A stretch of DNA of 64,000 nt from Armatimonadota bacterium (GTDB lineage Bacteria > Sysuimicrobiota > Sysuimicrobiia > Sysuimicrobiales > Humicultoraceae), in contig JAVKHP010000001.1 of the NCBI GenBank assembly GCA_031459855.1, positions 1,929,078-1,993,077 of the forward strand, written 5' to 3'. The notes beneath the pieces were generated by a model. The model did not search any database, was not told the origin of the DNA, and worked only from the letters and a program-made list of their open reading frames with translations. Shown here one piece after another: positions 10,410 through 39,557 of the stretch. Within the stretch, counting starts at the first letter, position 1, and each line of letters begins with the position of its first letter. A program made the translations under genes and the position numbers.

Positions 10410-10435
10410 GGGAGGACCTCCTTGCGCGTCTACCG

Positions 10436-26041: not shown

Positions 26042-26359
26042 CTACACGGGAATGCCCATCATCTGCAGCTGCAGCCGGCCGTCCTCGGTGACCCGATCGG
26101 GCGTCCACGGCGGCGTCCACACGAACTCCACGGACACTGACTCCGCCCCGATCGCCTGTAACTTGTTCTCGATCTCGGCGGCGATCATGGGACCCACCGG
26201 GCAGCCCGGTGCGGTCAGGGTCATGGTGATGCGGACCTGTTCGCCCTCGACCTGGAGGTCGTAGACGAGCCCCAGGTCCCAGACGTTGACCGGGATCTCA
26301 GGATCGAAGACCGTCTTCAAGACGTCGATGACGCGTTCGCGGGTGATCGCGTCGTCCAT
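26042..26359 (-). CDS. MIP18/DUF59 family Fe-S assembly protein (SufT/PaaD-like)
   Basis: A 105-residue protein. The start at 26359 has GGAGGAA upstream. ERVIDVLKTVFDPEIPVNVW followed by DLGLVYDLQVE is the DUF59 core, and LTAPGCPVGPMIAAEI carries the conserved cysteine. The C-terminal EFVWTPPWTPDRV is typical of the SufT/PaaD-like group that helps mature iron-sulfur proteins. It is the last chromosomal gene before the mobile element. Confidence 0.92.
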   Translation of the reverse strand: MDDAITRERVIDVLKTVFDPEIPVNVWDLGLVYDLQVEGEQVRITMTLTAPGCPVGPMIAAEIENKLQAIGAESVSVEFVWTPPWTPDRVTEDGRLQLQMMGIPV

Positions 26360-26429
26360 CGCGCATTCCTCCGCACGGGCCCGGCAGGCCGCGGAACTTG
26401 GTTCATTGTACCGGCCTGGCGCGGGCGGG

Positions 26430-26443
26430 GTCAAACGGCGAGG
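26430..26443. repeat. Left 14-bp target site duplication of the casposon-like element
   Basis: GTCAAACGGCGAGG directly precedes the left terminal repeat and recurs exactly after the right one (39272-39285). Confidence 0.88.
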
Positions 26444-26479
26444 GGGATAAGAGCCTAACCCTGCCGGGAGTTCCCCCTA
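26444..26479 (+). repeat. Left terminal inverted repeat (36 bp)
   Basis: Starts GGGATAAGAGCCTAACC and ends GTTCCCCCTA. It matches the reverse complement of 39236-39271 at 35 of 36 positions. About 390 bases of GT-rich noncoding sequence follow (26480-26866). That subterminal part shares blocks such as GTGGTGACGTG, TCTGCCCTCT, GGGTCACT and CGTGCCCCGTGG with the other end. Confidence 0.9.
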
Positions 26480-26866
26480 CAGTTCGCTCGTCGGGGGTTT
26501 GTGCAAGGGGTGGCTTCATGCCTCCCCTGGTGGGAGTGTGGGGTGACGTGGGTGTGGTGGGGCGTGTGGTCTGGTGGCGCGGGTGGCCTCTGCCGTGGGG
26601 GTGTGACGTGGTGACGTGGCAAGGCGCACGTGGGGTGGTCTCTGCCCTCTCCCCCTGGTGGGTCACTGTGCGGTCGCGCCAAGCGTGCCCCGTGGAGGTC
26701 GCGGTCTATTGGGCCTCCCCCCTGGGCCGGCGCGGGGGGGCTTGGCGGGACGCGGCGTCCTCGGGGCGCCACCCCCTCGGGAGGCCGACCGTGGGTCGGG
26801 CTGCCCGCGACCCGCACTAGCCGGCTGGGCTTGGCCGGAACGAACAAAATTGCGTGTCTCGTCGCT

Positions 26867-27889
26867 TCAAATGTCGACATCGACTGTGTAATTGATCCGT
26901 CCTCCGTTGGGAATCACGTAGGAAAACACTCGCTCTTGCCGCACGAAGTTCTCCAGGGTTCCAAACATCCGGCGGATATTGGTCAAGGTATACTGAGTAG
27001 GATTGCGACGCCCCTCGATGAGTTTGTAGGGGGGCGTAGGTATCGTCATTCGCGGCCAGCAGAAAGCATCAGCGATCAAGTCGGCAAGCGCTTGAAGATT
27101 ATCACGGCATTGATTAGGGTCCGGAAACTGGCACTGATACCCACCTAGCCCCAAGTGGCGCGAGGTGACTTGCCCCCTTCCACGTGTAAACCCTACCCGT
27201 TCGATAGCGGGGAAGACTCGATCGCGCATGGTTTCCTCAAAGGATTCTGTATCGATGCGGCTCAGCGTTGCCACAAGTTGCGGATGGGGAATCCAGTTTC
27301 TAACCCAATCGTGGACGTTCCTTGGATATCTCTGACCGTTGATCCACGAAGAATCAGGGAGCCAGAGAAATGCCTCTTGGAACGGATCGCAGACGGGTCC
27401 AAGGTCAACATTGTGTAGCCAAAGCAAGAAATGAATCGTCCCCAACGGATACTTGTGCGGGAATGTTCTGCCATCGCAAAGACTACAGGCTTCTCCGTGA
27501 TCTCGGGCACGACCGCCTCCGGCACGTCCAGTGACACCTCGAAAGAGGTTGGGGTTCACCGATTCGCGATGTTCGAGGATGTTGCCAGTAGCGGACTCTA
27601 GCAAAATATGGTGACCTATGCTTCTAATTTCGGCGCGACTAACGTCGAGGTCGAGCCAAACTGCGTTGCGCAGGCACCTCGGACTGATCTGGTGCGAATA
27701 CCAGACTTTGTGATAATCGACGTAGAAACCAGCGACATCCCACGCGAACAAATGGTGCATCAGAACGCCGCACATTACCGAGTCCAAGTCGTCGCCGAGA
27801 ACCATCTGGAGGCCTTGCTTTGTCAGCCACGGGTGTCGCTCAAGGATTGACCCGCGCGAGAACTTGTCAAGGACATAGGGTTGGGTCAA
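26867..27889 (-). CDS. Hypothetical protein with DHH-like motifs, element cargo
   Basis: A 340-residue protein starting at TTG 27889 with AGGAGGT eight bases upstream. The N-terminal half has LGDDLDSVMCGVLMHHLF, VWLDLDVSRAE and IRSIGHHIL, an arrangement reminiscent of motifs I to III of DHH phosphoesterases (Asp-rich, Asp, His-His). This is resemblance by eye only. CSLCDGRTFPHKYPLGTIHF contains a CxxC. It is divergent from the HTH/methyltransferase pair and shares their lower GC, so it could be the nuclease or partner of a modification system. No named family is recognised. Confidence 0.55.
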   Translation of the reverse strand: MTQPYVLDKFSRGSILERHPWLTKQGLQMVLGDDLDSVMCGVLMHHLFAWDVAGFYVDYHKVWYSHQISPRCLRNAVWLDLDVSRAEIRSIGHHILLESATGNILEHRESVNPNLFRGVTGRAGGGRARDHGEACSLCDGRTFPHKYPLGTIHFLLWLHNVDLGPVCDPFQEAFLWLPDSSWINGQRYPRNVHDWVRNWIPHPQLVATLSRIDTESFEETMRDRVFPAIERVGFTRGRGQVTSRHLGLGGYQCQFPDPNQCRDNLQALADLIADAFCWPRMTIPTPPYKLIEGRRNPTQYTLTNIRRMFGTLENFVRQERVFSYVIPNGGRINYTVDVDI

Positions 27890-27955
27890 CAGCGTGACCT
27901 CCTGGCATTTCTAAGAGTGTTACCCTTCAGACTGAGTTTTCTCCTCGCCTTCGAC

Positions 27956-27984
27956 TTGACTCTGGCGGGAAGAGGCGATAAACT
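27956..27984 (+). promoter_or_regulatory. Sigma-70 promoter of the HTH/methyltransferase genes, leaderless
   Basis: TTGACT (27956-27961), 17 bases, TAAACT (27979-27984). The ATG at 27993 is only eight bases after the -10 box and has no SD, so a leaderless mRNA is expected. Confidence 0.65.
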
Positions 27985-27992
27985 ACAAAAAA

Positions 27993-28214
27993 ATGCGAAA
28001 AGAAGCAAATCACTCAATTAGCCAGCAGACAGAGGGAGGAGACCTCCTGACGTTAGAGGAGGCAGCACGATTTCTCAGGCTGTCGCGGCATACTTTGTAC
28101 AAGATGGTTTCCGCAGGTCGCATTCCTGCCCTACGCGCCGGGCGCCAATGGCGTTTCAGCAAACGACATCTTGAGGACTGGCTTAGAGACAACGCGAAAA
28201 GGCGGAGGGACTAA
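27993..28214 (+). CDS. Excisionase-family helix-turn-helix protein
   Basis: A 73-residue MerR-like winged HTH. LLTLEEAARFLRLSRHTLYK is the helix-turn-helix and IPALRAGRQWRFSKRHLEDW the wing, the standard excisionase/AlpA-type DNA-binding module. It overlaps the methyltransferase start by one base (TAATG). It may regulate the methyltransferase or act in element excision; the sequence does not decide. Confidence 0.85.
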   Translation: MRKEANHSISQQTEGGDLLTLEEAARFLRLSRHTLYKMVSAGRIPALRAGRQWRFSKRHLEDWLRDNAKRRRD

Positions 28215-29146
28215 TGAACAAGATTTTTCTCAAGAGCTGCGAGAGAATGGATGAATTGCCAGATGGGAGCATCGCTCTTACGGTGACCAGCCCACCTTAC
28301 TGGAACGCTATCGACTACGACGTTCACACAAAGAGCAAGGGCGCCAACTATCGCTACCGCCAGAACGTGCCATACGAAGAGTATCTTGGATTTCTGCGAC
28401 GATGCTTCACGGAGGTCAAGCGGGTCACGAAAGACGGAGGCTATTTGGCCATTGTGGTGGGTACCGTCCTCCTAAATGGCAAGCACACGCCTCTACCTTT
28501 CCACCTTGTGGGTCTTCTGGAGGAAATCGGTTGGGAATTCCATCAGGATATCATTTGGCACAAGTGCACTGCAGGTGTGAAGCGTGCGGGCTCTGTTATC
28601 CAGAAACCATACCCCGGTTATTATTACCCCAACATCATGACAGAGTACATCCTGATTTTCCGGAAACCTGGCGAGTCCAAGATCTACAACGCGATCTCTA
28701 CGGAAAGGAAGGAAGAGAGCAAGATTCAAATTGATTCAGTCTTCACAATGGACACGGCAAACAACGTGTGGCACATTGCACCTGTGCCGCCAGGTCAATA
28801 CAACCACCCTTGCCCGTTCCCCGAGGAGATTCCTTATCGACTCATTACCTTGTACTCCTACAAAGGCGACACTGTTCTCGACCCCTTCGTTGGGGTGGGC
28901 ACCACTCTCAAGGTTGCCCATAACCTAGGCAGGAGATGGATTGGCTACGAGATTATTGAGGAGTATGTAGAGGAGTCCTACCGCCGCATCAACCAGCCTT
29001 TGCGCTTACGCAAGCAATTGATTGTGTCATTTGATAAGATCTCGCACGGCGTCAAGATACCCGCCAAGAACCCACCTAGGACCCCGTTCACTCGACCATG
29101 GCGGAAGAAACGGCAAAAGGGTCTTGAACCCATACGGCTCTTCTAA
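28214..29146 (+). CDS. DNA methyltransferase, beta-class amino-MTase (N4-cytosine or N6-adenine)
   Basis: A 310-residue protein with motif IV TSPPYW at residues 25-30 near the N-terminus, a central target-recognition part, and motif I DTVLDPFVGVGTT near the C-terminus. That is the circularly permuted beta-class order. SPPY (rather than DPPY) favours N4-methylcytosine. SD GGAGGG sits just before the start, overlapping the HTH gene. It may protect the element or act in a restriction or defence system with the divergent DHH-like protein. GC is visibly lower than in the chromosome. Confidence 0.88.
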   Translation: MNKIFLKSCERMDELPDGSIALTVTSPPYWNAIDYDVHTKSKGANYRYRQNVPYEEYLGFLRRCFTEVKRVTKDGGYLAIVVGTVLLNGKHTPLPFHLVGLLEEIGWEFHQDIIWHKCTAGVKRAGSVIQKPYPGYYYPNIMTEYILIFRKPGESKIYNAISTERKEESKIQIDSVFTMDTANNVWHIAPVPPGQYNHPCPFPEEIPYRLITLYSYKGDTVLDPFVGVGTTLKVAHNLGRRWIGYEIIEEYVEESYRRINQPLRLRKQLIVSFDKISHGVKIPAKNPPRTPFTRPWRKKRQKGLEPIRLF

Positions 29147-29194
29147 CTGGCCCCGGGCTTGACCGAGCCCCCATCACAGCCAACAATAGAGGAT

Positions 29195-29234
29195 GTGAAG
29201 TGAAGTGAAGTGAAGTGAAGTGAAGTGAAGTGAA
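29195..29234 (+). repeat. Eight tandem GTGAA pentanucleotides
   Basis: A perfect array of eight 5-bp units between the methyltransferase stop and the start at 29300. A pentamer array is prone to slippage. It cannot be coding, since every frame meets TGA within 15 bases; an effect would be on promoter spacing or the leader. Confidence 0.85.
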
Positions 29235-29299
29235 AGTGGGCGAAACCTGTCACCGGCGCTACATGGCGGTGGGCCTGATCATCGCACGGGGGCGAGGCC

Positions 29300-30115
29300 A
29301 TGTTGTCCACCGCAGGATTGCTGCTCTCGCTGATAACACCGTTTGTCGTTGCGATTCCTTCTCAAGTACTCCTCGCCCAGGAGCTGGAGTGTCGGGTATC
29401 AGAATGGCTACCTATTGGTTTGGCGAGGCAAGGTGGATACGCTTTCAATTACCAGTCGGGCAGAGGTCCAAACTGCAGGGTGTATCGCTTGCGTAATATG
29501 CCCGGCGGCCTCCTCACCCCGGTTCGGTGGAGGGACCGCGGAGAGATTTTCATCGATCAAAACCTCGCTGCTTGTACAAAGGAGACGCGCACGTGCCCCT
29601 GGATGGAGGCCATAAAGATATCATCGCGGGCGGTGACCGGGCGGACGACAATATCCTACGGCGTCAACAAGGACGAATACAGTGACTATCCTGACGCTTA
29701 TCGACGCGGGGAACTTGCGGCGTTCGCACCTCTCGTGACCATTCTGCGGGGGATAACCGCTAGCGCAGCAGGGGAGCCAGTGGAGATCGAGATCCGCGTA
29801 GTTTCGACTGTGCAAGCGGGGGCTGTTCTGAGGCTGCAGTATGAAATCATGCTCATTCGCAGTTCGGTGGGTGCCTTCGAGTATGTAGCGCCAGGGAAAA
29901 GGCCGGAAGGGTTCGGTATTGTATGGGAATCCCCCACCAGCTCATGGTTTCTTGATTACATAGGATCCGTCAGACGATTGGCTATAGGTTCTCCACGTTC
30001 GGTCGCAACTTCCACTACTGCCCCTCTACTCGTTGATTCGTCCCGACTCGTGGTCATGCAAAGGGACAGGGAGATTCTCGCCACTACTGCGCCCGCGTAC
30101 AAACCTCGGGAATGA
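29300..30115 (+). CDS. Secreted protein of unknown function, element cargo
   Basis: A 271-residue protein. MLSTAGLLLSLITPFVVAIP then SQVLLAQELE looks like a Sec signal peptide with cleavage near LLAQ-E. The mature part has cysteines (ECRV, NCRVYR, CTKETRTCPW) that could form disulfides outside the cell, and no family I recognise. It overlaps the following membrane protein gene by ATGA, so the two are probably a functional pair. It could be an immunity or surface function; unknown. Confidence 0.6.
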   Translation: MLSTAGLLLSLITPFVVAIPSQVLLAQELECRVSEWLPIGLARQGGYAFNYQSGRGPNCRVYRLRNMPGGLLTPVRWRDRGEIFIDQNLAACTKETRTCPWMEAIKISSRAVTGRTTISYGVNKDEYSDYPDAYRRGELAAFAPLVTILRGITASAAGEPVEIEIRVVSTVQAGAVLRLQYEIMLIRSSVGAFEYVAPGKRPEGFGIVWESPTSSWFLDYIGSVRRLAIGSPRSVATSTTAPLLVDSSRLVVMQRDREILATTAPAYKPRE

Positions 30116-30594
30116 AGCGTACGATCTGGGATGAGGTAAGGAGAGTCTTCAGTCTCGTCGAGTGGATATACAACTTGGTCAATGTCCTGACCAGTTTGTC
30201 GATGATCACGCTCCTCCCTTTCACCCTTACGACTTCGCGAACGCTGCGGATTTACATAGTGTCGTTCGGTCTGTTGGGCGGCGCGCTCGGTTACTTGTTC
30301 ACGGTCACGGCATGGGCAGGGAAAGGGAAGAAGCGTTGCCTCGAACAGCGTAAGAAATTCATAGTCCTCGCTCTCTTATCGCTTTTTTTCTACGCCTGCA
30401 TGCTGATTGTGTTGGGTCCGGAACCCGCGGCTCGATACGCTTTCTTCGCGGCCATAAGGGAATTCCTCATGAAGGTAATGCTTCTTGCCAATCTGCTTAC
30501 TGGGGTTGGTGCGGCATTGACAGTTTACTTTCTGGTCAGCGTGATAACCATCTCTTCTAGCAAACTGGCCACGACTCCGAAGTCTAGAGACTGA
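30112..30594 (+). CDS. Small integral membrane protein, element cargo
   Basis: A 160-residue protein with about four hydrophobic helices: LVNVLTSLSMITLLPFTL, IYIVSFGLLGGALGYLFTV, FIVLALLSLFFYACMLIVLG and LLTGVGAALTVYFLVSVITI. Basic loops face the cytoplasm. It starts inside the stop of the secreted protein gene. No family is recognised. Confidence 0.65.
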   Translation: MKRTIWDEVRRVFSLVEWIYNLVNVLTSLSMITLLPFTLTTSRTLRIYIVSFGLLGGALGYLFTVTAWAGKGKKRCLEQRKKFIVLALLSLFFYACMLIVLGPEPAARYAFFAAIREFLMKVMLLANLLTGVGAALTVYFLVSVITISSSKLATTPKSRD

Positions 30595-30822
30595 GGCACA
30601 GGTGTGAGGCGCAGCCGAAGCGGTGCCGCCCGGTACTCGGTAGACCGCTAGTTTCACGGATTTTGTTGTCGTTTTTCGCCCTCAGGAACAGGAGCGAGAC
30701 GGCACCTGCTGTAAGTAGCCGCTGAAACGCCTCAGCCGAGCGGGAGGCGATGCCCGGTCGGGTTCAAGCCGCGAGCCGCAGTGCTCGCAATACCGCCTTT
30801 CGGGTGACGAGAAACTACCGCA

Positions 30823-32400
30823 CTACGTACGCTGAACCATGCCGGCTTCCCCCCAACCATCTCGTGTTTCGACAGCTCTTCGCAGCGCCTCCCAGTGCCT
30901 GGGATGCGGCACGTACAAGCCACGCCGGATCAGGGACGCATACCGCAGGGAGATCCCTGCTGCACGGACGATGCGCTCTAAGGGCACGGAGCGCAGCAGG
31001 GGCAGGATCTCCCGCCGGAACACCTCAGGGTCTGGGCGAGGGTGGGTCTCGTCCCACGCCCGCGCTTCCCGACGGCGCCGGCGCAAGGCTTCAGCCCGGC
31101 GGCGCGCGGCCTGCCCGCCATGCGAGGGATCGACGCCCGTGCGGCGCCGCCGCGCAAACTCCCGCAGGCCGGCGGCCACGATGCGCTCTGTCTTGTCCTG
31201 CTTTCCGCAGTCGTCACAGAACATCCGGCCCCGCGCCTCCAGCACCACGCCACACCTGACGCAGACCGTGTACTCCAGCCCCGGAAGCGCAGGGGCGTTC
31301 GGCGCAGCCTTGCGTATGCCCTCCCGGCCGGCACTCCGGTTCGCCTGGGTGAGCGGGGTCGGCAGCCGCCGGCGGCTGCCTGCGGTCTCGGCCAGCAGCG
31401 CGGCCACCCGCTCGGCCCAGGGCGCCACCGCCTGCGCCCACCGCGGCGAGGTCGCAAGCAGCGCCCGGCTTAGGGGCAGCAGCACCCGCACCTGGCCCCG
31501 GCTTACCTCCTGGAAGTCCCGGGCGCTGAACACCCTGGTCCGCAGCAGGTCGAGCACAAAGGCGTCTACTGCCGGCCGCACCGGCTCCATGAGGTCCAGG
31601 CTTAGCGACGCCCGGGCGGGCTGGTCGGCGTGCAGGATCCCTAGCCCTGGGTCCAGCCCCACGGCCTGGCAGGCGATGGTGGCCTCGGCTTCCAGCAGCG
31701 CGTAAAGGAGGTTCAACAGGGCATGGGCGGGGGTGGCCGCAAGCCTGGGGGAGCCAGTGATGGGGGAGATGCGGGGCCCCACAGTCTTCCAGTGCTCCGG
31801 CACTCGCCGGGCATCTGCCGTGGCCCAGCGCACCGGCAGCGGCCTCCAGGCCTCCCAGTAGAGAGTGCCGGCCCTGGCCTCGACCAGCCGCAGCCGCTCC
31901 AGGGTGTCCGCCCGGTGCAACACGTCCAGCTGCTCCCGGACGGCCCGTTGGGCGTCGGGGTTAGGAAGCTGCGCCAGCACGTCGGCCTGGGCCGCCAGCT
32001 TGGCGCTCAAGAGCTCGCGGGTGATCCGCACCCCGGCCTCGGTGCTGGGTGCCAGGGCCTGGGCCCGGCGCAGCCGGGCATCGTCCAGGCCCCGGGGGCC
32101 GCTGGAGAGCAGCACCGTGCCGTCCAGGTGCACGCAGATAAGCCCGGCGCCCACATCATGCAGCCACCGGAGGGCTTCCAGGGTCATGGTCCCACCGCGC
32201 CCGAACAGGACCAGCCGCTGCAGGCCGGCGGTCGCCCGGTGAAATCGTGCGGTGCGCCGCTCGTCACACCACCCGTCCTCGCAGACGAGGTGCCGGCGCC
32301 TCGTAAAGACCCGGAGGCCGTAGCCTGAGAGGACCAGGACCCCATTGCGGGGCGTGGGGGGTGCGGTGGGCTGCGCCCTGTGGTATGCTCCTGCTGGCAT
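30823..32400 (-). CDS. cas1: Cas1 integrase (casposase-like, solo Cas1) with zinc ribbon and C-terminal HTH
   Basis: A 525-residue protein. Start at 32400 is set by AGGAGGTGG just upstream. Residues 20-100 form the Cas1 beta-domain (VLVLSGYGLRVF...). The catalytic alpha-domain has LNLLYALLEAEATIA with Glu239, GLGILHAD with His257 and DLMEPVRPAVD with Glu272, matching the Cas1 metal-binding Glu-His-Glu/Asp set. Unlike CRISPR Cas1 of about 330 residues, it continues with a CxxC-x11-CxxC zinc ribbon (Cys380, 383, 395, 398), an Arg-rich linker and a C-terminal HTH (about 472-515; ISLRYASLIRRGLYVPHPRH). No Cas2, Cas4 or array is present. Solo Cas1 with C-terminal HTH inside terminal repeats is what casposases look like. 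It should integrate the element and generate the 14-bp duplication. Confidence 0.9.
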   Translation of the reverse strand: MPAGAYHRAQPTAPPTPRNGVLVLSGYGLRVFTRRRHLVCEDGWCDERRTARFHRATAGLQRLVLFGRGGTMTLEALRWLHDVGAGLICVHLDGTVLLSSGPRGLDDARLRRAQALAPSTEAGVRITRELLSAKLAAQADVLAQLPNPDAQRAVREQLDVLHRADTLERLRLVEARAGTLYWEAWRPLPVRWATADARRVPEHWKTVGPRISPITGSPRLAATPAHALLNLLYALLEAEATIACQAVGLDPGLGILHADQPARASLSLDLMEPVRPAVDAFVLDLLRTRVFSARDFQEVSRGQVRVLLPLSRALLATSPRWAQAVAPWAERVAALLAETAGSRRRLPTPLTQANRSAGREGIRKAAPNAPALPGLEYTVCVRCGVVLEARGRMFCDDCGKQDKTERIVAAGLREFARRRRTGVDPSHGGQAARRRAEALRRRRREARAWDETHPRPDPEVFRREILPLLRSVPLERIVRAAGISLRYASLIRRGLYVPHPRHWEALRRAVETRDGWGEAGMVQRT

Positions 32401-32471
32401 GCAGGACCACCTCCTGTGTGCCGGGGTGCCCGCGCCTTCCTGGGCTGCCACGCTGTGGAGGCGCGGGCTTC

Positions 32472-33188
32472 CTACTTGGTACTGCTTTCGTGTCTCCTCC
32501 CGGTCTTTCTCGCGCTGTCTTTGCGTTTCCGTGCAAGCCATAGCACGAACAGGATAAGCAGGCGCTCCTCGGAAGGAATCCCCTGAAGCTTCTGCTCCCA
32601 TTGCGGGAGGCCCATGATTTGGGACAGCGACAGGCGCAGCAAACCGAACTCCTCATTACCCACATCATGTGGCTCAGCATCTTTGAGCAGGCCGCGCCAC
32701 CTCCGCACATTCAGCGGCCACGCGATGTCCGACCAACGGCGGCCGGTCTGTTGTATCGCTCGCGTACCTGCCTGCTCCTGGGCGTACCGCGCGGCCTCAT
32801 CCAACGCTTGCGCGATCATCCTAAGCTTCCGTCTCGGCTGCTTGCGGTTCATCTCTCCGGACAGGCGGCGTAGAGCCCTCAGCGCCTGGCCCGAGGTAAT
32901 TCCCAAGTTGGCAATGTACAGTCGCAGCACCCTCCTGGCGAGCGATCGAATCCCTTGCTTTGCGAGGTCGTGCGCGTACTTCACCAGCGTTATGGAGTCA
33001 TCGGGATACTGTCCTTCCACCGGCTCCGGGACGATCCCAGCCTTCCGAAACAGCTGAAGCTGGTACCAGGAAGTTGGGTACCCTTCCTCGGCTAGGCGTC
33101 TGAGAAGCGCGGATTGGCTAAGCATCCCGAGCCAGCGGTAGGTAACAAACCTACAAACAATTCTGCCAGCATGTGTGGAATTCGTCAA
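32472..33188 (-). CDS. Hypothetical protein upstream of cas1
   Basis: Up to 238 residues; the alternative start at 33125 (MLSQSALLRRLAEEGYPTSW) gives about 217. The N-terminal segment SALLRRLAEEGYPTSWYQLQ then LFRKAGIVPEPV resembles a MerR-like HTH. The middle is strongly basic and helical (RRLSGEMNRKQPRRKLRMIA) and the rest charged. It precedes cas1 by 71 bases on the same strand and is probably cotranscribed. A DNA-binding accessory for transposition is possible but not shown. Confidence 0.6.
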   Translation of the reverse strand: MTNSTHAGRIVCRFVTYRWLGMLSQSALLRRLAEEGYPTSWYQLQLFRKAGIVPEPVEGQYPDDSITLVKYAHDLAKQGIRSLARRVLRLYIANLGITSGQALRALRRLSGEMNRKQPRRKLRMIAQALDEAARYAQEQAGTRAIQQTGRRWSDIAWPLNVRRWRGLLKDAEPHDVGNEEFGLLRLSLSQIMGLPQWEQKLQGIPSEERLLILFVLWLARKRKDSARKTGRRHESSTK

Positions 33189-33273
33189 GGTCTGAGACTA
33201 GTGTGGGGCCGTAGCGTGGCTATACGATATCCACAGACCGTCGGGTCCGTGCGCCGCCAGACGGTCAGCCGCG

Positions 33274-33348
33274 CGAGGCCAAGCCTGGCTAGGCCCGGCG
33301 CGGCGAAGCGAGGCGAGGCGAGGCATGGCACGGTCTGGCACGGCACGG
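33274..33348. repeat. Fifteen phased CNNGG-type pentanucleotides
   Basis: From 33274 the sequence keeps a 5-base period for 15 units: cgagg ccaag cctgg ctagg, then more CNNGG units to cacgg at 33348. Positions 1 and 5 are nearly constant and 2-3 vary. It occupies the divergent region between the cas1 operon and the ParB-like operon. The function is unknown; phased G-runs could be a structural or protein-binding tract. Confidence 0.6.
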
Positions 33349-33434
33349 CGTGCTGGGTGGGGCCACGGGGCCGAGCGCCTCGTGGCCCGCATTCTTCTTT
33401 GGGGTGCGTACGACTACAAGGGGAGGTGAGACGA

Positions 33435-33758
33435 GTGACACTCACCGCAGAACGGGTACACCGCAGAGCGCAGTTCGCGGAGAGCCAGGGTGGATCGTTG
33501 ACCTTCCGTAGGCGCCGAGTCGACGCGGCATTCCTTCGGGCGTTGTTGGAGCGAGCAGGTGATGCCACGTGGCTGTGTAGTGGAGGGGTCTACCTGCACG
33601 AGGACGCCAGCCGCGTGGCGTGGGCGTTGCGTCGATGGTTCAAGGTGAACCGGCCCGACATGCGCTTGTCGGTCCGGTTGGAACCCGTAGACGGTGGCTG
33701 GCGTCTATGGGCGTGCGTGCAGCCTCGCACACCTGGGCACCCCGAGGATCAGCCATGA
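33435..33758 (+). CDS. Hypothetical protein, first gene of the element's replication-like operon
   Basis: 107 residues from GTG 33435, with GGGAGGTGAGAC upstream. It has GSLTFRRRRVDAAFLRALLE and a C-terminal RLSVRLEPVDGGWRLWACVQ, alpha-beta in character and basic. It overlaps the ParB-like gene by ATGA. No family is recognised. Confidence 0.65.
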   Translation: MTLTAERVHRRAQFAESQGGSLTFRRRRVDAAFLRALLERAGDATWLCSGGVYLHEDASRVAWALRRWFKVNRPDMRLSVRLEPVDGGWRLWACVQPRTPGHPEDQP

Positions 33759-34471
33759 GCGACGGGAACGTCGTTGAGGTTCGGGTAGATCACCTCGTGG
33801 TGGACCCGACCGTGCAACCCCGTATGCGCGGCGTCACGCAGCAGCACGTGGCGCTCCTGCACGAAGGGCTGGCTGCAGGAACGCTGCCGCCTATCACGGT
33901 TACGCCACGACGGGATGGGCAGTTCGTCGTGATTGACGGCGCACACCGGCTTGAGGCCTACCGCAAAGCCGGCGTGAAGACCGTGCCTGCGCGCGTCGTA
34001 GAAGCTGCGGGCTACTGGGAGGCGTTCTGTGCCAACCGCGACCACGGCCTGCCGCTGACCATCGAAGACCGCAAGCGCGCGGCAGTCTGGCTCAAGCAGC
34101 ATCGTCCCGAGCTCAGCGTCCGGGCGATTGCGAAGGAGGTCGGCCTCGCCGTGAGCACCGTCCAGGGCGCGCTCTGCCAGCGCCGGCGGATCCAGCGCGG
34201 CGGTGGTCTGGCCGTACAGCGACCAGACCCGTGGCGGCGTTTCCTGCGGGCACTGGCGCAGCTCTACGAGCGCCGCGGCGACGACCCGCGCTTCGTGGAC
34301 AGCCTCGCGCAGGACCTCGTGGATCTGGTGGAGGGCACCTCCGACCCCGGCTTGGTGTGGGATGCGCTCCTCGACTTCGTTGCAGCCGTGGAGCGGGCCT
34401 GGGAGTTGACCGAGCATCTCTATCCGGAGGAGGGCACGAACAACACGCCCCGGGCGTCGTCCCGGGGCTGA
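33755..34471 (+). CDS. ParB/Srx-fold nuclease-domain protein
   Basis: A 238-residue protein. The N-terminal domain has VRVDHLVVDPTVQPRM, LPPITVTPRRDGQFVVIDGA and HRLEAYRKAGVKTVPARVV, the ParB N-terminal domain with the GxHRxxA-like box (GAHRLEAY). Residues 100-150 contain a KorB/ParB-type HTH (LSVRAIAKEVGLAVSTVQGA). The C-terminal part is acidic-helical. Likely a DNA- or nucleotide-binding regulator or partition protein of the element. Translationally coupled to 33435-33758. Confidence 0.85.
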   Translation: MSDGNVVEVRVDHLVVDPTVQPRMRGVTQQHVALLHEGLAAGTLPPITVTPRRDGQFVVIDGAHRLEAYRKAGVKTVPARVVEAAGYWEAFCANRDHGLPLTIEDRKRAAVWLKQHRPELSVRAIAKEVGLAVSTVQGALCQRRRIQRGGGLAVQRPDPWRRFLRALAQLYERRGDDPRFVDSLAQDLVDLVEGTSDPGLVWDALLDFVAAVERAWELTEHLYPEEGTNNTPRASSRG

Positions 34472-34486
34472 TGAGAGGACCGTGCC

Positions 34487-34936
34487 GTGGTATCTCAATT
34501 ACATTCTCCACGTACACCCCATCGCACGTCAAGAGCCCTCCGGGGGCTTCGCGGCCAGGTCGTCTACCTAGCCTCCGCGGTCGCGTTGTACCGCACGCGC
34601 CACTACGACCGGGCCGAGCAGCTGCTGCGCGAACTTGGCGCTGGCCTCGTGATTTCCGCGCGCGAGCGTTTCCCGAACCACGGCGCCTGGCTGCGGGATT
34701 TTCCCCAGGTCCTCTCCCAGGTGAACGCCGTCGTGGTCGCGTTGGGACCCGACCGCATCGTCGGCGCGGGCGTCGTGCGGGAGGTCGTGGAAGCGACAGC
34801 GCACGGGCTCCCGGTGCACTTCCTGACGCCGGACGGGACGTTTCGGACGCTGCGCGGTGCGCACCTGGTGGTCTTACACGGCGTCAGCCTCCGCCGGTTC
34901 GCCCGCGTGGAGTTCCCGGCCGGGAGAGAGGCGTAA
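34487..34936 (+). CDS. Nucleoside 2-deoxyribosyltransferase-like protein, copy 1
   Basis: 149 residues from GTG 34487. VVYLASAVALYRTRHYDRAE, VISARERFPNHGAWLRDF, AVVVALGPDRIVGAGVVREV and LPVHFLTPDG follow a Rossmann-like pattern with the GxxxEV helix seen in nucleoside 2-deoxyribosyltransferase-fold proteins. It is paralogous to the next gene, which starts in its stop codon (TAATG). Enzymatic activity is not established; several catalytic positions cannot be confirmed by eye. Confidence 0.55.
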   Translation: MVSQLHSPRTPHRTSRALRGLRGQVVYLASAVALYRTRHYDRAEQLLRELGAGLVISARERFPNHGAWLRDFPQVLSQVNAVVVALGPDRIVGAGVVREVVEATAHGLPVHFLTPDGTFRTLRGAHLVVLHGVSLRRFARVEFPAGREA

Positions 34937-35355
34937 TGCGCCGCGTGTATCTCGCCGCACCCTGCGCAGAGTACGCGCCGGACGTCTACCGACGCGTCAC
35001 CGACATCTTCCGGCGGCGTGGCGCCGAGGTCGTCTCCAGCCGCGACCTCTTCCCAACGCCCGCCGCATGGCAGCGCGGGTGGCGGCAGGCGTTGGACGGG
35101 TGCACGGACCTGCTGGTGCTGCTTGGGCCCCAGCGTGTGCTCGGGGCCGGCTCGCTGTTGGAGGTCGTCGAGGCGCGCGCCGCTGGCAAGGGCATCTGGT
35201 TCGCCCAGCCCACCGGTGCGATTCGCCCGCTGCCCGGCGTTTGGCTGCAGTTTCTCCCGGGTCGGTCCCGAGTGCGGGTTGCCCAAGTCAACTTTGAGCC
35301 ACGTCGCAACAGGCAGCCGCCCCGGAAACCCGGGGCGGCCGAAGGAGGAAGCTGA
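34936..35355 (+). CDS. Nucleoside 2-deoxyribosyltransferase-like protein, copy 2
   Basis: 139 residues. RRVYLAAPCAEYAPDVYRRV, EVVSSRDLFPTPAAWQRGW, LLVLLGPQRVLGAGSLLEVV and GKGIWFAQPTGAIRPL align block by block with the preceding gene, indicating tandem duplication. Fold assignment as for copy 1. It overlaps copy 1 by one base and precedes the helicase gene by 2 bases. Confidence 0.55.
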   Translation: MRRVYLAAPCAEYAPDVYRRVTDIFRRRGAEVVSSRDLFPTPAAWQRGWRQALDGCTDLLVLLGPQRVLGAGSLLEVVEARAAGKGIWFAQPTGAIRPLPGVWLQFLPGRSRVRVAQVNFEPRRNRQPPRKPGAAEGGS

Positions 35356-35357
35356 CC

Positions 35358-36734
35358 GTGAGCCAGGTACTCACGCTTCGATCTCGTTCTACCACACGCA
35401 AGCCTACTGTGTATCTTTCCGCCACTCAGGACCCGGCGCTGCGTGAACACGAGGTCCTCCAGGCGCTCAGCCGCCTGCGTCCCCCGCAGGTGTTCGTGCG
35501 CGGCGGCCGCCTCGTGCGGGTTGTGGCGACGACGCACGGTGCGCAGCTCGACGAGCTCGACGAGGCCGCGTTGAGTGGGATATTGCAGCGCAGCGTGACG
35601 TTCGTCCGCGTTGATCGCCACCGGGTCACGTATGCGTACCCACCCCGCGAGCTCGTGCGCATGATCCTGCGCCGGGGCTCCTGGCCGCTGCCGGACTTGG
35701 TGGGCATCGTGCGCTGCCCGGTGGTGCGGCCTGATGGCATCATCGTGCTGCGCGAGGGGTACGATCCGGCTACTTGCTTGTACTACGCGGCTGGCGACCT
35801 TGACGTGCCGTGCCCCCCGGATGACCCCACGCCCCACGACGTTGACCGCGCACGGCAGCTGTTGCTGGAAGAGCTGCTTGGCGACTTCCCCTTCGCCGAC
35901 GACGCCAGCCGTGCCAACGCCCTGGCGCTGCTGCTGTCCCCGCTGCTGCGCTTCGCCGTCGCAGGATCCACGCCGCTCTTCCTCGTCAGCAAGCCCACGC
36001 CGGGAACAGGGGCGACGCTGCTTGCCCGCGCCGCCGCGCTCATCGCAACGGGGCACGACGCAGTCACCAACCCGCCCGAGAGCGAGGAGGAAGCCCGCAA
36101 GCTCATCACGAGCGTCCTGCTGGAGGGCCGCCAGGTGGTCGTGCTGGACGACGTCGGCAGCCTGAAGCTGCGCGCGCTGAGCCACCTGGTCACGACGAAA
36201 CGGTGGAGTGCGCGGCTGTTGGGTACGAACCGGGTCTGCGAACTGTTACAATCTGCGACCTGGATCGCCACGGGGAACAACGTGCAGCTTGGCGCCGACC
36301 TGGCGCGCCGTGTGGTCTGGATTCGGCTGGACGCGAAGCACTACCGCCCCTGGGAGCGCAGTGGGTTTCGGCATCCCGACCTATTGCGCTGGGTTCGCGA
36401 GCATCGCGGGGAGCTGATCTGGGCTCTGCTGGTCCTCTGCCGCGCCTGGTGGGCAGCAGGCTGCCCGGAAGCAGAGGTACCCACGATGGGCGGGTTCGAG
36501 GCCTGGGCCCGCCTTGTAGGGTCGATCCTGCACCACGCCGGCATTGAGGGGTTCCTCGCCAACCGCCAACAGCTTTACGACCTTGATCAGGAACACGCCG
36601 GCTGGTTCGAGTTTTTTGTAGTCTTGCAGGAACGAGCGCCTGCGCGAGGGTGGCGGAGGCCGTGCGCACGGAGCTGCTGGAGCTCGAAGACCTGCGCTCG
36701 CTACTTCGGGATCATCCGAACAAAGTGGCCCTGA
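35358..36734 (+). CDS. SF3/AAA-type helicase-like replication protein with altered Walker A
   Basis: About 458 residues, GTG start. The N-terminal half (residues 1-190) is a primase-associated-like domain. The ATPase core has SKPTPGTGATLLARAAALIA where the Walker A lysine (GTGKT/S) is Ala, Walker B VVVLDDVGSLK, sensor ATWIATGNN and the arginine-finger-like ARRVVWIRLD. This organisation is familiar from replication proteins of integrative elements and phages. Homologues should hydrolyse ATP; the missing lysine suggests altered or no activity. The last 35 residues change character where the HTH frame (36650) begins, so a frameshift near 36,625 is possible. Confidence 0.7.
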   Translation: MSQVLTLRSRSTTRKPTVYLSATQDPALREHEVLQALSRLRPPQVFVRGGRLVRVVATTHGAQLDELDEAALSGILQRSVTFVRVDRHRVTYAYPPRELVRMILRRGSWPLPDLVGIVRCPVVRPDGIIVLREGYDPATCLYYAAGDLDVPCPPDDPTPHDVDRARQLLLEELLGDFPFADDASRANALALLLSPLLRFAVAGSTPLFLVSKPTPGTGATLLARAAALIATGHDAVTNPPESEEEARKLITSVLLEGRQVVVLDDVGSLKLRALSHLVTTKRWSARLLGTNRVCELLQSATWIATGNNVQLGADLARRVVWIRLDAKHYRPWERSGFRHPDLLRWVREHRGELIWALLVLCRAWWAAGCPEAEVPTMGGFEAWARLVGSILHHAGIEGFLANRQQLYDLDQEHAGWFEFFVVLQERAPARGWRRPCARSCWSSKTCARYFGIIRTKWP

Positions 36735-36952
36735 GCCGCCAATGCCGCGTGAGCCGGCAAAACATCTACCGCATCATCTCCGGGGACCGCACCCCGTCCG
36801 AGGCCCTCCGCGCCCGCCTCCGGGCCACCCTCGCATCGAACACCACCGAACAGTCAAGCCCACCCCGAGGTGGCACATGGGGTGCGGAGTCCAATGGACG
36901 GGTTGCCGCCAGAGGCGGGCGCGAAGGATCCGTGAGTGAGATGGGACGTTAG
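36650..36952 (+). CDS. Small HTH DNA-binding protein overlapping the helicase gene
   Basis: Up to 100 residues from GTG 36650. KVALSRQCRVSRQNIYRIIS and GDRTPSEALRARLRATLA form a lambda-repressor-like HTH. It overlaps the end of the helicase gene by 85 bases in another frame. It is either a separate protein or the displaced C-terminus of the helicase after a frameshift. The tail after residue 65 is low complexity. Confidence 0.5.
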   Translation: MAEAVRTELLELEDLRSLLRDHPNKVALSRQCRVSRQNIYRIISGDRTPSEALRARLRATLASNTTEQSSPPRGGTWGAESNGRVAARGGREGSVSEMGR

Positions 36953-37091
36953 GCTGATCAGCAGTGTAGTATACTGTCAAAAAATAAGGGGTGAGCAGTC
37001 TGGCGGAGACCAAAACCGGTTGGGCGGTTCCGGTCGATGAGTCACCGGGCCCCGGGGATGTTAGGCCGACGCAGGTGGGGTGTTAGGTCGG
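36948..37091. promoter_or_regulatory. Three GTTAGGYYGR repeats and a TATACT -10 box before the PLD gene
   Basis: GTTAGGCTGA (36948), GTTAGGCCGA (37060) and GTTAGGTCGG (37082). TATACT is at 36970-36975 with a possible frame of 31 codons from GTG 36991 that I do not trust. GTTAGGCT also occurs in the terminal inverted repeat, so the same protein might bind both. Confidence 0.35.
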
Positions 37092-37125
37092 TACAAAATG
37101 AGTTCGGCAGCAGGGTGATGCGGCC

Positions 37126-38070
37126 ATGAGGACACAGTTTCTCGCAAATGGCCTTTGGCGCCGGTTGTCCTCGATGGCCAAGCGCACCAAGGGCCAAGTC
37201 GCTGTGCCATACTTCGGGACCGGCGGGGCGGATCTGCTTCCGCTTCGGCGCGGAAGCCTGCTTGTTGTGCGATTTGACACCGAGGCGATAAAGACCGGGC
37301 AGACGAACCCTTCCGAAATCATTCGACTACTCAACCGCGGGGTCGAGGTTCACGCCTGTCGCAACCTCCATGCGAAGGTGTTCGTTTTTGGAGACACGGC
37401 GGTGATCGCCTCCTCAAACGTGTCTCGCTCCGCTGCGAATCACCTGATCGAAGCCGGGCTTGCGACCTCCTCGCCGGCTCTCGTCAGCGCGTCACGCCGA
37501 TTCGTTGAATCCTTGCGAGGTGACCCGATCGGATTGGAGTTCGCTCGGAGGATGAAGAAGCTATACCGTCCGCCTCGTGGCGGGCGGATCCAGCGTGGTG
37601 CTGGTCCAACTGCAGGTGCACCGCTTCACTCCCGGATGTGGGCCGTTCCCCTCGTGCGCGGCTCCTTCGAAGAGGAGGATCGCCTCCAGCGAGATGAGGC
37701 GCGTGAAGCAGCTAAGCGTAGGCGCGAAAACCCGCGAGCCACCAGGATCGAGGACTTCCTATGGACAGGCGACAGTTTCCTGGACAGGCTCCACCTCGGC
37801 CACCGCGTCGTCATGGTCACTGATGAGGCCAACGGCAAGCGCATGGTGTCGCCGCCCGGCCGCGTTCTCGCCATCAGGAAGTACCGTGTTCGGAACCAGT
37901 CTCGTGCCATCATCGCCCTTGAAGTACCGAAAGACGCACGCAACCGCAGCATCCAGCGTGTCGTCCGATCCATTGGTCCAACGGCCAGGATACTGAGGAA
38001 GCTCGCTTCACCGCGCGAGATCCGAGATGGAATGCTGGCCATGTCGCTGGCAAGGATGTGGTCATCGTGA
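37126..38070 (+). CDS. Phospholipase D-like nuclease-domain protein, element cargo
   Basis: 314 residues, no strong SD. NLHAKVFVFGDTAVIASSNV carries a single HxK motif (His82, Lys84) of PLD-family nucleases, preceded by LLVVRFDTEAIKTGQTNPSE. One HKD motif means a dimer would be needed, as in Nuc/BfiI. The C-terminal half is basic with a possible separate domain (RIEDFLWTGDSFLDRL). Probably a DNA nuclease in defence or element maintenance; followed by two small genes that look cotranscribed. Confidence 0.72.
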   Translation: MRTQFLANGLWRRLSSMAKRTKGQVAVPYFGTGGADLLPLRRGSLLVVRFDTEAIKTGQTNPSEIIRLLNRGVEVHACRNLHAKVFVFGDTAVIASSNVSRSAANHLIEAGLATSSPALVSASRRFVESLRGDPIGLEFARRMKKLYRPPRGGRIQRGAGPTAGAPLHSRMWAVPLVRGSFEEEDRLQRDEAREAAKRRRENPRATRIEDFLWTGDSFLDRLHLGHRVVMVTDEANGKRMVSPPGRVLAIRKYRVRNQSRAIIALEVPKDARNRSIQRVVRSIGPTARILRKLASPREIRDGMLAMSLARMWSS

Positions 38071-38161
38071 AAAGTCGTACCGAACATGCCGCTTCAGCGG
38101 ACGGGGCGCTCGCGTTGCTCGCGCTCCCGCCGCTGAGCAACTGGAGCAGGGGGGAGAGAAA

Positions 38162-38356
38162 GTGGAGCGATCTGTTCAGATACTTCGGCTTGAGCTAGAG
38201 GGTAAGTGGTCCGCGGACGAGCTGGGCGAGGCCTTGGTCAGTATCTCGAATCTCTACGATCTGCGGTTTTTCCTTGAGCTGCTACATGAGGATCAAGAGG
38301 ACTGGGTGCGCTTCTACGAAGAGCTGATGCGCTTTCCGCCGTTCAGACGCCGTTGA
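38162..38356 (+). CDS. Small hypothetical protein (64 residues)
   Basis: GTG 38162 with GGGGGGAGAGA upstream. VERSVQILRLELEGKWSADE then LGEALVSISNLYDLRFFLEL is an alpha-beta sequence with many acidic residues (HEDQEDW). Twelve bases before the next gene; they are probably a pair. No family is recognised. Confidence 0.65.
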   Translation: MERSVQILRLELEGKWSADELGEALVSISNLYDLRFFLELLHEDQEDWVRFYEELMRFPPFRRR

Positions 38357-38368
38357 CGGAAGCGCTTT

Positions 38369-38818
38369 GTGTACTGGGGACCTAGCCCATGGGCACCCTG
38401 GTTCCCCAGCTCCTTCCCTCCGGTACTTGACGACGTTCAACTTTCGCAACTCTGGCAGCTGCTTGAGCCTGAGGAGCGTCTTGCGGTTCGGCGTATCAAC
38501 TACGCATCTCCTGGCGCAACCGACTTAGCGGGCATCGGCACTGTGGTCGGCCACATCAAGGACTTCATCCTGAAGCTTATCGAACGCCGGGATTCCAGGC
38601 GGAGGCGGGAACTGGACGAGGAACGAGCAGCACTGGAGAACGAGCGCATTCGGCTCGAGAACGTCAAGAGCTTTGTCGCTCTTGCACGCGACCTCGGCTA
38701 CTCGGAGACCGATCTTCGTCATCTTATACGATACGTTGACGGAAAGCAGGATATTCTCGTTCGCCTCATCGAACAGCGCAAGCTGGTAGGGGTGTCGATG
38801 CCGGAGACGACAGACTAA
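38369..38818 (+). CDS. Hypothetical coiled-coil protein (149 residues)
   Basis: GTG 38369. After a Pro/Trp-rich start, IGTVVGHIKDFILKLIERRD leads into a charged coiled coil (RRRRELDEERAALENERIRL), then VALARDLGYSETDLRHLIRY, and it ends with DGKQDILVRLIEQRKL. It resembles small scaffold-like partners seen beside defence effectors, but no named family is recognised. Last gene before the right end of the element. Confidence 0.6.
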   Translation: MYWGPSPWAPWFPSSFPPVLDDVQLSQLWQLLEPEERLAVRRINYASPGATDLAGIGTVVGHIKDFILKLIERRDSRRRRELDEERAALENERIRLENVKSFVALARDLGYSETDLRHLIRYVDGKQDILVRLIEQRKLVGVSMPETTD

Positions 38819-39235
38819 CGATGACGGTCAGACACGCCGATGCAGCGGCCGGCGGAGCCGGTCCGCTACATTGCTACATTGTTAGACCACAACGCAACCT
38901 TGGCCCGAATAGTGGCTCCGCGGGCAGCGGGACGAGGCAGCCCGCCCCCGGGGGTAGCGCCCCGCCCCGCAGCGCCCCAGGGCCAGGGCCCCGCGCACGC
39001 GACCCGAGACGGGGGGCCAAGCGGCGACCCCCCACGGGGCACGCCCCGCGGGACCGGATAGTGACCCACAGAGGGCAGAGAGCAGACGCCGCCTGAGGGC
39101 CCGCCCATCACGTCACCACGCCACGCCCCACGACCCACGGCACACCAACGTCCCACGACCCGCAGCACCCGCAACCCACGGCTCACGCCCACCCAAGGGC
39201 CCAAGACCCTTGCGCAACCCCTTGACTGTCGCCTC
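38819..39235. other. Noncoding right subterminal region of the element
   Basis: No gene. Read from the right end inward, it repeats blocks of the left subterminal region: GCGCAAGGG, GTGGTGACGTG, TCTGCCCTCTG, GGGTCACT and CGGGGCGTGCCCCGTGG. The two ends thus share homology over about 300 bases beyond the 36-bp inverted repeats. Confidence 0.75.
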
Positions 39236-39271
39236 TAGGGGGAACTCCCAGCAGGGTTAGGCTCTTATCCC
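39236..39271 (-). repeat. Right terminal inverted repeat (36 bp)
   Basis: Reverse complement begins GGGATAAGAGCCTAACC, continues CTGCTGGGAG and ends CCCCCTA, with one mismatch to the left copy (T for C at position 22). Confidence 0.9.
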
Positions 39272-39285
39272 GTCAAACGGCGAGG
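39272..39285. repeat. Right 14-bp target site duplication
   Basis: GTCAAACGGCGAGG, identical to 26430-26443 and immediately followed by a third GGGATAAGAGCCTAACC. Confidence 0.88.
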
Positions 39286-39480
39286 GGGATAAGAGCCTAA
39301 CCTTTCCCCGAGTGGCCTCTGGAGGTCGCTTGTCACGGGTCGCGCAAGGGTTTCTGGTGGTGTGCCTCTGGGGGCGGGGTGTGTGGGGTGTGTGGCGTGG
39401 TGACGTGATGGGCGGGCCCTCGGGCGGCATCTGCCTTCTGTAGGTCACCGTCTAGTCCCGCGGGGCGTGCCCCGTGGGGG
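39286..39480 (+). mobile_element. Solo terminal end of a second, lost casposon-like copy
   Basis: GGGATAAGAGCCTAACC (39286-39302) repeats the first 17 bases of the terminal repeat in left-end orientation. The following 180 bases contain GCGCAAGGG, GTGGTGACGTGATGGGCGGG, TCTGCCTTCTG, AGGTCACC and GGGCGTGCCCCGTGG, matching the subterminal regions. No body or second end follows; the UPF0182 gene starts at 39558. Confidence 0.7.
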
Positions 39481-39557
39481 TCAAGGCCCGCGGGGCGCGC
39501 CCGGATGCCGTGCGTGGTCGCCCGCATAAACAGATGGCAGGGAAGGACAGGTGGGCC

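What the first reader, a model, noticed from the sequence alone, without database searches (positions are those of the whole stretch)
26444..39271. A 12.8-kb bacterial casposon-like element without PolB
Seen: 36-bp terminal inverted repeats with one mismatch, a perfect 14-bp flanking duplication (GTCAAACGGCGAGG), and a Cas1 gene with intact catalytic residues and no CRISPR array, Cas2 or Cas4. Known: casposons are Cas1-mobilised elements with such repeats and 14-15 bp duplications, and most described families carry a PolB-type polymerase. Inferred: this is a new or poorly described casposon family that replaces PolB with a ParB-like/helicase replication operon and carries modification and nuclease cargo.
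Basis: partly seen in the sequence, partly recalled or inferred. Interest (0 to 1): 0.93.

Follow-up and report, generated by a model that had tools for sequence, protein, structure and literature searches.

The report
Casposon that targets gene promoters
This bacterial chromosome carries a 12.8-kb mobile element whose Cas1 enzyme, a relative of the CRISPR integrase, likely inserted it directly upstream of a predicted gene promoter, and related elements in other bacterial phyla also sit at predicted promoters.

Summary
A 12,828-bp element (26444-39271) has 36-bp inverted repeats with one mismatch, a perfect 14-bp duplication, and a Cas1 with its presumed catalytic residues. Five related genomes show the spot empty, with one GTCAAAC site.

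Three things change the picture. (1) It belongs to a broad lineage. Scanning 102 sequences around related cas1 genes gave 31 complete elements (Acidobacteria, Chloroflexi, Actinomycetes, own phylum); 22 carry a divergent PolB. The window copy lacks it, and since its helicase and ParB-like genes also occur beside PolB in relatives, PolB was probably lost, not replaced.

(2) The target is unusual. In 21 of 31 the duplication ends in TTGAC, a -35 box. At 13 of 15 independent sites a -10-like hexamer follows (background 6.3%), in front of tRNA-Gln, tRNA-Ala, valS, rplU, sufU, thrC and, here, a SufT-like gene. Deep branches of the lineage instead use tRNA or tmRNA 3' ends.

(3) Elements stack: promoter-distal flanks often hold another element or a lone end (window 39286-39502).

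Verdict: a PolB-less copy from a casposon lineage, part of which targets promoters; a new variant of a known kind, not found in the papers searched. Targeting is inferred from sequence, not assayed.

The parts
26430..26443 (-). promoter-proximal copy of the 14-bp target duplication; on the minus strand it ends in TTGAC, the predicted -35 box of the SufT-like gene
   Evidence: conserved as a single GTCAAAC site in 5 related genomes
26405..26410 (-). predicted -10 box TACAAT, 18-nt spacer from TTGACC
   Evidence: 5 of 6 match to TATAAT
26042..26359 (-). host gene next to the insertion: SufT-like/MIP18-type Fe-S assembly protein
   Evidence: NCBIfam TIGR02945 E=1e-32, below its cut-off; beside the UPF0182-type gene in 8 of 10 relatives
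26444..26482 (+). left terminal inverted repeat
26444..26700 (+). left end with subterminal blocks shared with the right end and the lone end
26867..27889 (-). ORF, 340 aa, no family match
28214..29146 (+). N6/N4 DNA methyltransferase
   Evidence: PF01555 E=2e-47
29300..30115 (+). ORF, 271 aa, no family match
30112..30594 (+). ORF, 160 aa, no family match
30823..32400 (-). cas1 (525-aa form; the open frame runs to 32601): Cas1 core, CxxC/CxxC pair, helical C-terminal domain
32472..33188 (-). ORF, 238 aa, weakly conserved in L027
33620..34471 (+). ParB-like protein
   Evidence: phrog_1033 E=2.6e-21; homologues in L025, L027, L068
34487..34936 (+). ORF, 149 aa, no confident family match
34231..35355 (+). 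open frame whose 3' part resembles the preceding ORF (by reading, not tested)
35358..36734 (+). primase/helicase-type ATPase, 458 aa, shorter than a 531-aa relative
   Evidence: phrog_19930 E=1.8e-38
36650..36952 (+). small ORF with weak HTH-type match
37126..38070 (+). PLD-like (DrmC-like) nuclease
   Evidence: PF13091 E=2e-5, below cut-off; DrmC E=7e-9
38027..38356 (+). small ORF, no match sought
38369..38818 (+). ORF, 149 aa, no family match
39233..39271 (-). right terminal inverted repeat
39272..39285 (-). promoter-distal copy of the 14-bp duplication
39286..39502 (+). lone end of an older element: first 17 nt identical to the TIR, homology over about 217 nt, no partner end found in the genome
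39573..42326 (+). host gene on the far side (UPF0182 family; name recalled)

Best explanation
This is an integrated casposon-like transposon without PolB that lies directly upstream of the predicted -35 box of a host gene, where its Cas1 likely inserted it by joining its two ends to nicks 14 bp apart and so duplicating the 14 bp that hold the -35 box. Shown: the inverted repeats, the exact 14-bp duplication, an intact-looking Cas1, the single-copy site in related genomes, and a lone older end beyond the distal duplication. Inferred: Cas1 does the joining; it recognises the promoter as other casposases recognise a 'leader' (one joint is exactly at the 3' edge of TTGAC, the other 14 bp upstream); the promoter stays intact because the copy of the duplication next to the -10 box keeps the -35 box; and because that copy also rebuilds the target, later elements enter at the promoter side, so elements stack with the newest next to the promoter. 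PolB should not be needed for this joining step; this copy probably lost it, and any replication would rely on its helicase plus host polymerase, or on none.
Against: No transposition, transcription or DNA-binding assay. 8 of 31 complete elements have no TTGAC: G098_C19 lies at a tRNA-Leu 3' end, G092_C61 beside what reads like a tRNA 3' end, G061_C24 beside a tmRNA 3' end; G061_C13, G064_C74, G092_C66, G099_C4 and G099_C13 at sites not understood. So promoter choice belongs to part of the lineage. Three of 8 relatives with the two genes adjacent have no GTCAAAC site. Sites L047 and L048 score only 3 of 6 for the -10 box. The 15 sites were chosen for a TTGAC-like end, and the background is all TTGACs, not only intergenic ones, so part of the excess may reflect intergenic composition (within-leader shuffle p about 1e-4). 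Several elements share homologous sites; the choice of one per site was mine. The window's own lone end falls just under the TIR-profile threshold (1.7 against 2.8), although 17 nt are identical to the TIR. Ends on the promoter side also occur (3 of 23, members of tandems). The C-terminal domain matched no HTH family by sequence.
Confidence: 0.8

Rival explanations
1. A site-specific casposon whose target is a sequence motif (GTCAAAC) that only happens to lie in promoters; -35 boxes are simply the commonest place for it.
For: The conserved part inside the duplication is short, TTGAC at the edge; archaeal casposases also read a dinucleotide at the leader-duplication border (PMC6614799, passages).
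Against: TTGAC alone does not explain the -10-like hexamer at 16-18 nt (6.3% of all TTGACs, 13 of 15 sites) or the repeated housekeeping promoters.
Confidence: 0.12
2. Survivorship: Cas1 integrates widely, and only insertions upstream of strong housekeeping promoters (or at tRNA ends) survive or are kept.
For: Such sites should be harmless; 8 of 31 elements sit elsewhere.
Against: Survival alone would not fix the joint to the base at the edge of TTGAC in 21 of 31 elements.
Confidence: 0.06
3. The PolB-less state is a stable alternative replication module (ParB-like plus primase/helicase ATPase).
For: The helicase and ParB-like genes are present and the element looks recent (perfect duplication). 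A helicase homologue P0244 and a close Cas1 P0003 lie on contigs of the same length and source, 7,579 bp, possibly one contig.
Against: Homologues of both genes sit on contigs with PolB in relatives; among the 27 elements only 2 of 15 with full-length one-frame cas1 lack PolB (window and the 5.1-kb G089_C67).
Confidence: 0.2
4. A decayed CRISPR adaptation gene that became part of a genomic island.
For: The genome has a CRISPR array and a second Cas1 elsewhere.
Against: 28 bacterial rows including the window form one clade apart from 15 CRISPR Cas1 rows (SH-aLRT 98); TIRs and an exact duplication bound the island.
Confidence: 0.02

Closest known systems
Casposon family 3 (Ca. 'Acetothermum' AceAut-C1; PMC4046053, outline, abstract and Results parts 1-2 read)
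   Same: Bacterial; Cas1 with zinc-binding and HTH-type domains after the Cas1 core; relatives carry PolB and, by weak matches, HNH-like and HTH-type proteins; TIR and duplication
   Different: No family-3 sequence was at hand for the tree. The window copy lacks PolB. Described target sites are intergenic, tRNA 3' ends or the aEF-2 3' end, not promoters
Casposon family 2 (Methanosarcina mazei, Aciduliprofundum boonei; PMC6614799, PMC10359463, PMC9939771, passages read)
   Same: Leader plus 14-bp duplication as target, integration at the leader border, tandem stacking, closest solved structure 6opm
   Different: Archaeal; leader is the 3' end of a tRNA gene; separate clade in the tree
Casposon family 5, hot springs (PMC9755687, passages read)
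   Same: Mostly without PolB, Cas1 catalytic residues kept
   Different: Authors report no C-terminal HTH and place it near Cas1 of subtype I-A; our Cas1 has an extra C-terminal domain. Sequences not compared
TnGBS ICEs and ISLre2/ISKra4-group elements (PMC3942029, passages read)
   Same: Insert at a fixed distance upstream of sigma-A promoters, sparing the gene
   Different: DDE transposase, not Cas1; inserts 15-17 bp upstream of the -35 box, whereas here the -35 box itself lies in the duplication and one joint is at its edge

Membership tests
Casposon | Stand-alone Cas1 with complete catalytic residues, no cas2 | tested here: met
   no cas2 among the 10 element ORFs scanned
Casposon | Terminal inverted repeats | tested here: met
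Casposon | Target site duplication of about 14-15 bp and a single-copy site in relatives | tested here: met
Casposon | PolB gene (2014 definition: cas1 plus polB) | tested here: not met
   no PolB profile hit in the window and no long frame with a DTD motif in the element; met in 22 of 31 complete elements of the lineage. So this copy works like a casposon and belongs to a lineage with PolB, but fails the strict 2014 wording
Casposon | Cas1 outside CRISPR adaptation clades | tested here: met
   (quick tree, 54 rows, no bootstrap)
Casposon family 3 | Cas1 clades with family 3 | not tested
   no family 1, 3 or 4 reference sequence obtained
Casposon family 3 | Zinc-binding and HTH domains C-terminal to Cas1 (AceAut-C1) | tested here: inconclusive
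   CxxC at 380 and 395; helices 474-481 and 485-492 in the model; no sequence match to an HTH family
Casposon family 5 | Lacks C-terminal HTH, mostly lacks PolB | tested here: inconclusive
   PolB lacking, but an extra C-terminal domain is present; no family-5 sequence compared
CRISPR-Cas adaptation module | cas2 or repeat array next to cas1 | tested here: not met
   the genome's array lies about 0.9 Mb away
TnGBS-type promoter-targeting transposons | DDE Mutator-like transposase | tested here: not met
   no such family in the 10 element ORFs scanned

The most novel reading that the evidence does not exclude
Within a large bacterial casposon lineage the target has switched from tRNA/tmRNA 3' ends to sigma-70 promoters, which now serve as the CRISPR-like 'leader': the Cas1 C-terminal domain (or RNA polymerase itself) reads the -35/-10 pair, the -35 box is part of the repeat that is copied, and successive elements are stacked at the promoter end, giving arrays of whole transposons built by the same rule that builds CRISPR arrays.
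Probability: 0.45. Interest if true: 0.86.

Novelty: new variant of a known kind. Interest (0 to 1): 0.73.

Why it matters
Casposons are held to be the source of CRISPR adaptation, and the features they share with it are the integrase and the leader-plus-repeat target. The described casposons that I read about use gene 3' ends or intergenic sites; here part of a bacterial lineage appears to read promoters while its deep branches keep tRNA or tmRNA ends, so a switch of leader can be followed on one tree. CRISPR leaders also hold a promoter (recalled), although there it points into the array and here it points away from it. The lineage offers natural arrays on which polarised, repeated Cas1 integration can be studied, and a Cas1 with predictable target sites upstream of housekeeping genes. 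It also shows that PolB, treated as a hallmark, can be absent from an element with fresh-looking ends.

Tried and rejected
Search for further copies in the genome by TIR or by the lone end: only the three known ends. CRISPR spacers of the same genome against the element: 50 spacers; one search showed only the first 20 lines, so one search repeated it in full: longest alignment anywhere 23 nt with 3 mismatches, at most 15 nt in the element, so no real match. Single-protein scan of genome contigs: nothing; the alignment-based scan worked. Viral contigs: one weak hit. Plasmids: three ordinary CRISPR Cas1 at 32-37% identity, used as references. PDB sequence search with the polymerase alignment and with the helicase: nothing useful. 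The PolB model is of low confidence (pLDDT 61), so its fold match rests on the consistency of the 50 listed hits, all DNA polymerases, most of them enzymes that I know as family B. The 458-aa helicase is shorter than a 531-aa relative; the overlapping ORF 36650-36952 does not match that relative. Rfam at gathering scores: nothing at 25000-42000. Dropped before counts: 3 of 30 scan hits (G106_C10, G822_C158, L053), whose ends matched at only 12-13 of 20 positions. The first scan asked for 14-bp repeats only; checking other lengths (with GG tips 12, 13, 15, 16, 18; without that demand 12, 13, 15) added 4 elements and weakened 'the lineage targets promoters' to 'part of the lineage does'. 18 loci were replaced by longer fetches of the same contigs. 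Family 1, 3 and 4 casposase references could not be obtained (PMC4779613 is not held). In print: searches. The word 'promoter' has 0 occurrences in PMC9939771, PMC6614799 and PMC10359463. Subscription papers are not covered.
Full report
What is there. The element runs from 26444 to 39271 (12,828 bp). Its ends are inverted repeats that match at 35 of 36 positions (37 of 39), and GTCAAACGGCGAGG flanks it on both sides. G+C falls to 53% in its left half against 67-76% outside. Cas1 matches PF01867 and TIGR00287, and its four presumed catalytic residues are invariant in 36 of 36 aligned relatives. The other genes are a DNA methyltransferase, a ParB-like protein, a primase/helicase-type ATPase, a PLD-like nuclease and several unknowns. 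No ORF is a polymerase. Directly beyond the right duplication lies a third end, 39286-39502. It starts with 17 nt identical to the TIR and aligns with both ends over about 217 nt. No further end with this TIR was found in the 3.19-Mb genome.

Empty site. In 8 of 10 genomes of the same family the SufT-like gene and the UPF0182-type gene lie side by side; the other two, both incomplete, gave no UPF0182 match. In five of the 8 the gap holds one GTCAAAC site where the window has two copies and the element between them; the other three have no such site. In all five the same bases read, on the other strand, as TTGAC followed 17-18 nt later by a -10-like hexamer. In the window the pair is TTGACC, 18 nt, TACAAT, in front of the SufT-like gene.

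A lineage, not a singleton. 2,367 proteins matched the Cas1 at E of 0.001 or better among 7,997 scored candidates; the best 120 were listed, all with PF01867. In the window's phylum 5 of 43 genomes held, the window's own included, have such a Cas1. An alignment of 36 proteins found 79 genome loci in records titled Acidobacteria, Chloroflexi, Actinomycetes, Eremiobacterota, Gemmatimonadetes and others. With extra context I scanned 102 sequences (1.85 Mb) for two inverted ends of any sequence framed by a 14-bp direct repeat. 30 hits came out and 27 were kept. Asking instead for an exact repeat of another length gives 0 to 4 hits at each length from 9 to 18 except 14, which gives 23. A look at the odd lengths added four complete elements with repeats of 13 to 15 bp: G061_C13, G092_C61, G092_C66 and G098_C19, making 31. 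In the first 27 the tips start GGG except one end that starts GAG.

The target. 21 of the 31 duplications have TTGAC at one end; two more differ by one base; eight have none. I call the side where TTGAC faces the flank the promoter side. Beyond it a TATAAT-like hexamer (at least 4 of 6) stands 16-18 nt away in 8 of 10 sites, taking one per homologous site, against 6.3% of all 3,181 TTGACs in the same sequences (binomial p about 1e-8; shuffled leaders p about 1e-4). Five further one-ended junctions, chosen by a good end and GTCAA with no second end beside it, without looking at the -10, raise this to 13 of 15 (p about 2e-14), among them a perfect TTGACA, 18 nt, TATAAT in a Chloroflexi contig. 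One-ended junctions without GTCAA also exist (for example L043, L053) and were not counted. The genes that start downstream are tRNA-Gln (5 elements) and tRNA-Ala, valine-tRNA ligase (named for L036; four more elements show the same protein start), ribosomal protein L21 (L065, and L064 by its start), SufU (G822_C86), threonine synthase (L024), and here the SufT-like protein. For L025, L047, L048 and L086 the gene served is unclear. Elements at tRNA-Gln and tRNA-Ala stand upstream of the tRNA, not at its 3' end. Cas1 reads toward the promoter in 7 and away in 14 of the 21 elements where both could be told, so orientation is free.

Other targets in the lineage. G098_C19 lies directly after a tRNA-Leu, G061_C24 beside a tmRNA 3' end, and the right flank of G092_C61 reads like a tRNA 3' end (by eye; the tRNA finder did not call it). 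These are the classical casposon choices. G061_C24 and G064_C74 have a Cas1 that matches the profile only to position 455-456 of 524 and split from the other 26 bacterial rows (support 90). The genes of G092_C61, G092_C66 and G098_C19 (rows L063, L068, L079) form a clade of their own with L071 (support 98). G099_C4 and G099_C13 carry split or truncated cas1. So promoter choice looks like a property of part of the lineage, perhaps gained once; the tree root is not known.

Stacking. In 11 of 23 elements with a TTGAC-like duplication the promoter-distal flank begins with another element end above the 99.9% background; the window (1.7) and L056 (1.8) fall just under the threshold of 2.8. An end on the promoter side occurs in 3 of 23, all members of tandems; L055's promoter-side flank looks like an end by eye but scores -10.0. 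G190_C27 holds two different elements (16,441 and 5,338 bp) with three identical duplications, and G822_C86 holds two (10,619 and 19,422 bp) with one mismatch. This fits new elements entering at the promoter-side copy. The alternative, that deletions next to a promoter are selected against, is not excluded. Tandem casposons are known in archaea (PMC9939771, PMC10359463, passages read).

PolB. A protein of about 1,000 aa shared by the relatives has weak PF03175 matches and conserved motifs that I read, from memory of the family, as family-B signatures (DxxSxYP, KxxxNSxYG, DTDS). A low-confidence model (pLDDT 61) gives DNA polymerases as all 50 listed structural matches. It is present, whole or in pieces, in 18 of the 27 and in all four added elements. 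Among the 15 of the 27 with full-length one-frame cas1, only the window and the 5.1-kb G089_C67 lack it. A helicase homologue (46%) lies on the L121 contig, and ParB-like homologues lie on L025, L027 and L068. L121, L025 and L068 also carry the polymerase. So in the window PolB was probably lost rather than replaced. PolB-less casposons were already proposed as family 5 in hot springs (PMC9755687, passages).

Mechanism. Shown: ends, duplication, single-copy site in relatives, promoter motif, stacking. Inferred: Cas1 joins one end at the 3' edge of TTGAC and the other 14 bp upstream, fill-in copies the 14 bp, the promoter stays whole, and the copy next to the leader remains the target for the next element. 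This is the leader-plus-repeat rule of archaeal casposases and CRISPR (PMC6614799, passages) with a promoter as leader. One difference from CRISPR: the promoter points away from the array. Whether Cas1, another element protein or RNA polymerase reads the promoter is open. Promoter-side insertion itself has a precedent in DDE elements of the TnGBS/ISLre2 and ISKra4 groups, the first of which insert 15-17 bp upstream of the -35 box (PMC3942029, passages).

Novelty. In the open-access library searched I saw no casposon described at promoters and no account of this lineage in Acidobacteria. Subscription papers are outside that search, and of the 19 papers listed I read none beyond the listing.

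Noticed in passing
L229 4363-7457 (own genome contig C1, about 0.9 Mb from the window): A CRISPR array of 51 repeats (28 nt, 50 spacers) next to a second Cas1; no spacer matches the element.
   Followed up: partly
L190 (contig of G067), 2214-3695 and 9056-10555: Two near full-length casposase genes on opposite strands 5.4 kb apart on one 11.4-kb Acidobacteriaceae contig.
   Followed up: no
genomes of L029 (G066), L080 (G099), L041 (G078), L035 (G072): Several casposase hits per genome (7, 4, 4 and 4 at E of 1e-40 or better, some of them pieces of one gene), many truncated: these elements seem to multiply and decay.
   Followed up: no
G190_C27 second element (5,338 bp) and G822_C86 first element (10,619 bp): Complete ends and duplications but no cas1 found, so possibly moved by a neighbour's Cas1.
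   Followed up: no
G092_C61, G092_C66, G098_C19: Actinobacterial members of 18-20 kb with 13-15-bp duplications and other targets, at least one at a tRNA-Leu 3' end: a possible target switch inside the lineage.
   Followed up: partly
window 25251-25360: A 32-nt near-identical direct repeat, 78 nt apart.
   Followed up: no
L024, element end at 2611: An Actinomycetes contig where the casposon end sits upstream of a predicted promoter and a threonine synthase gene.
   Followed up: partly
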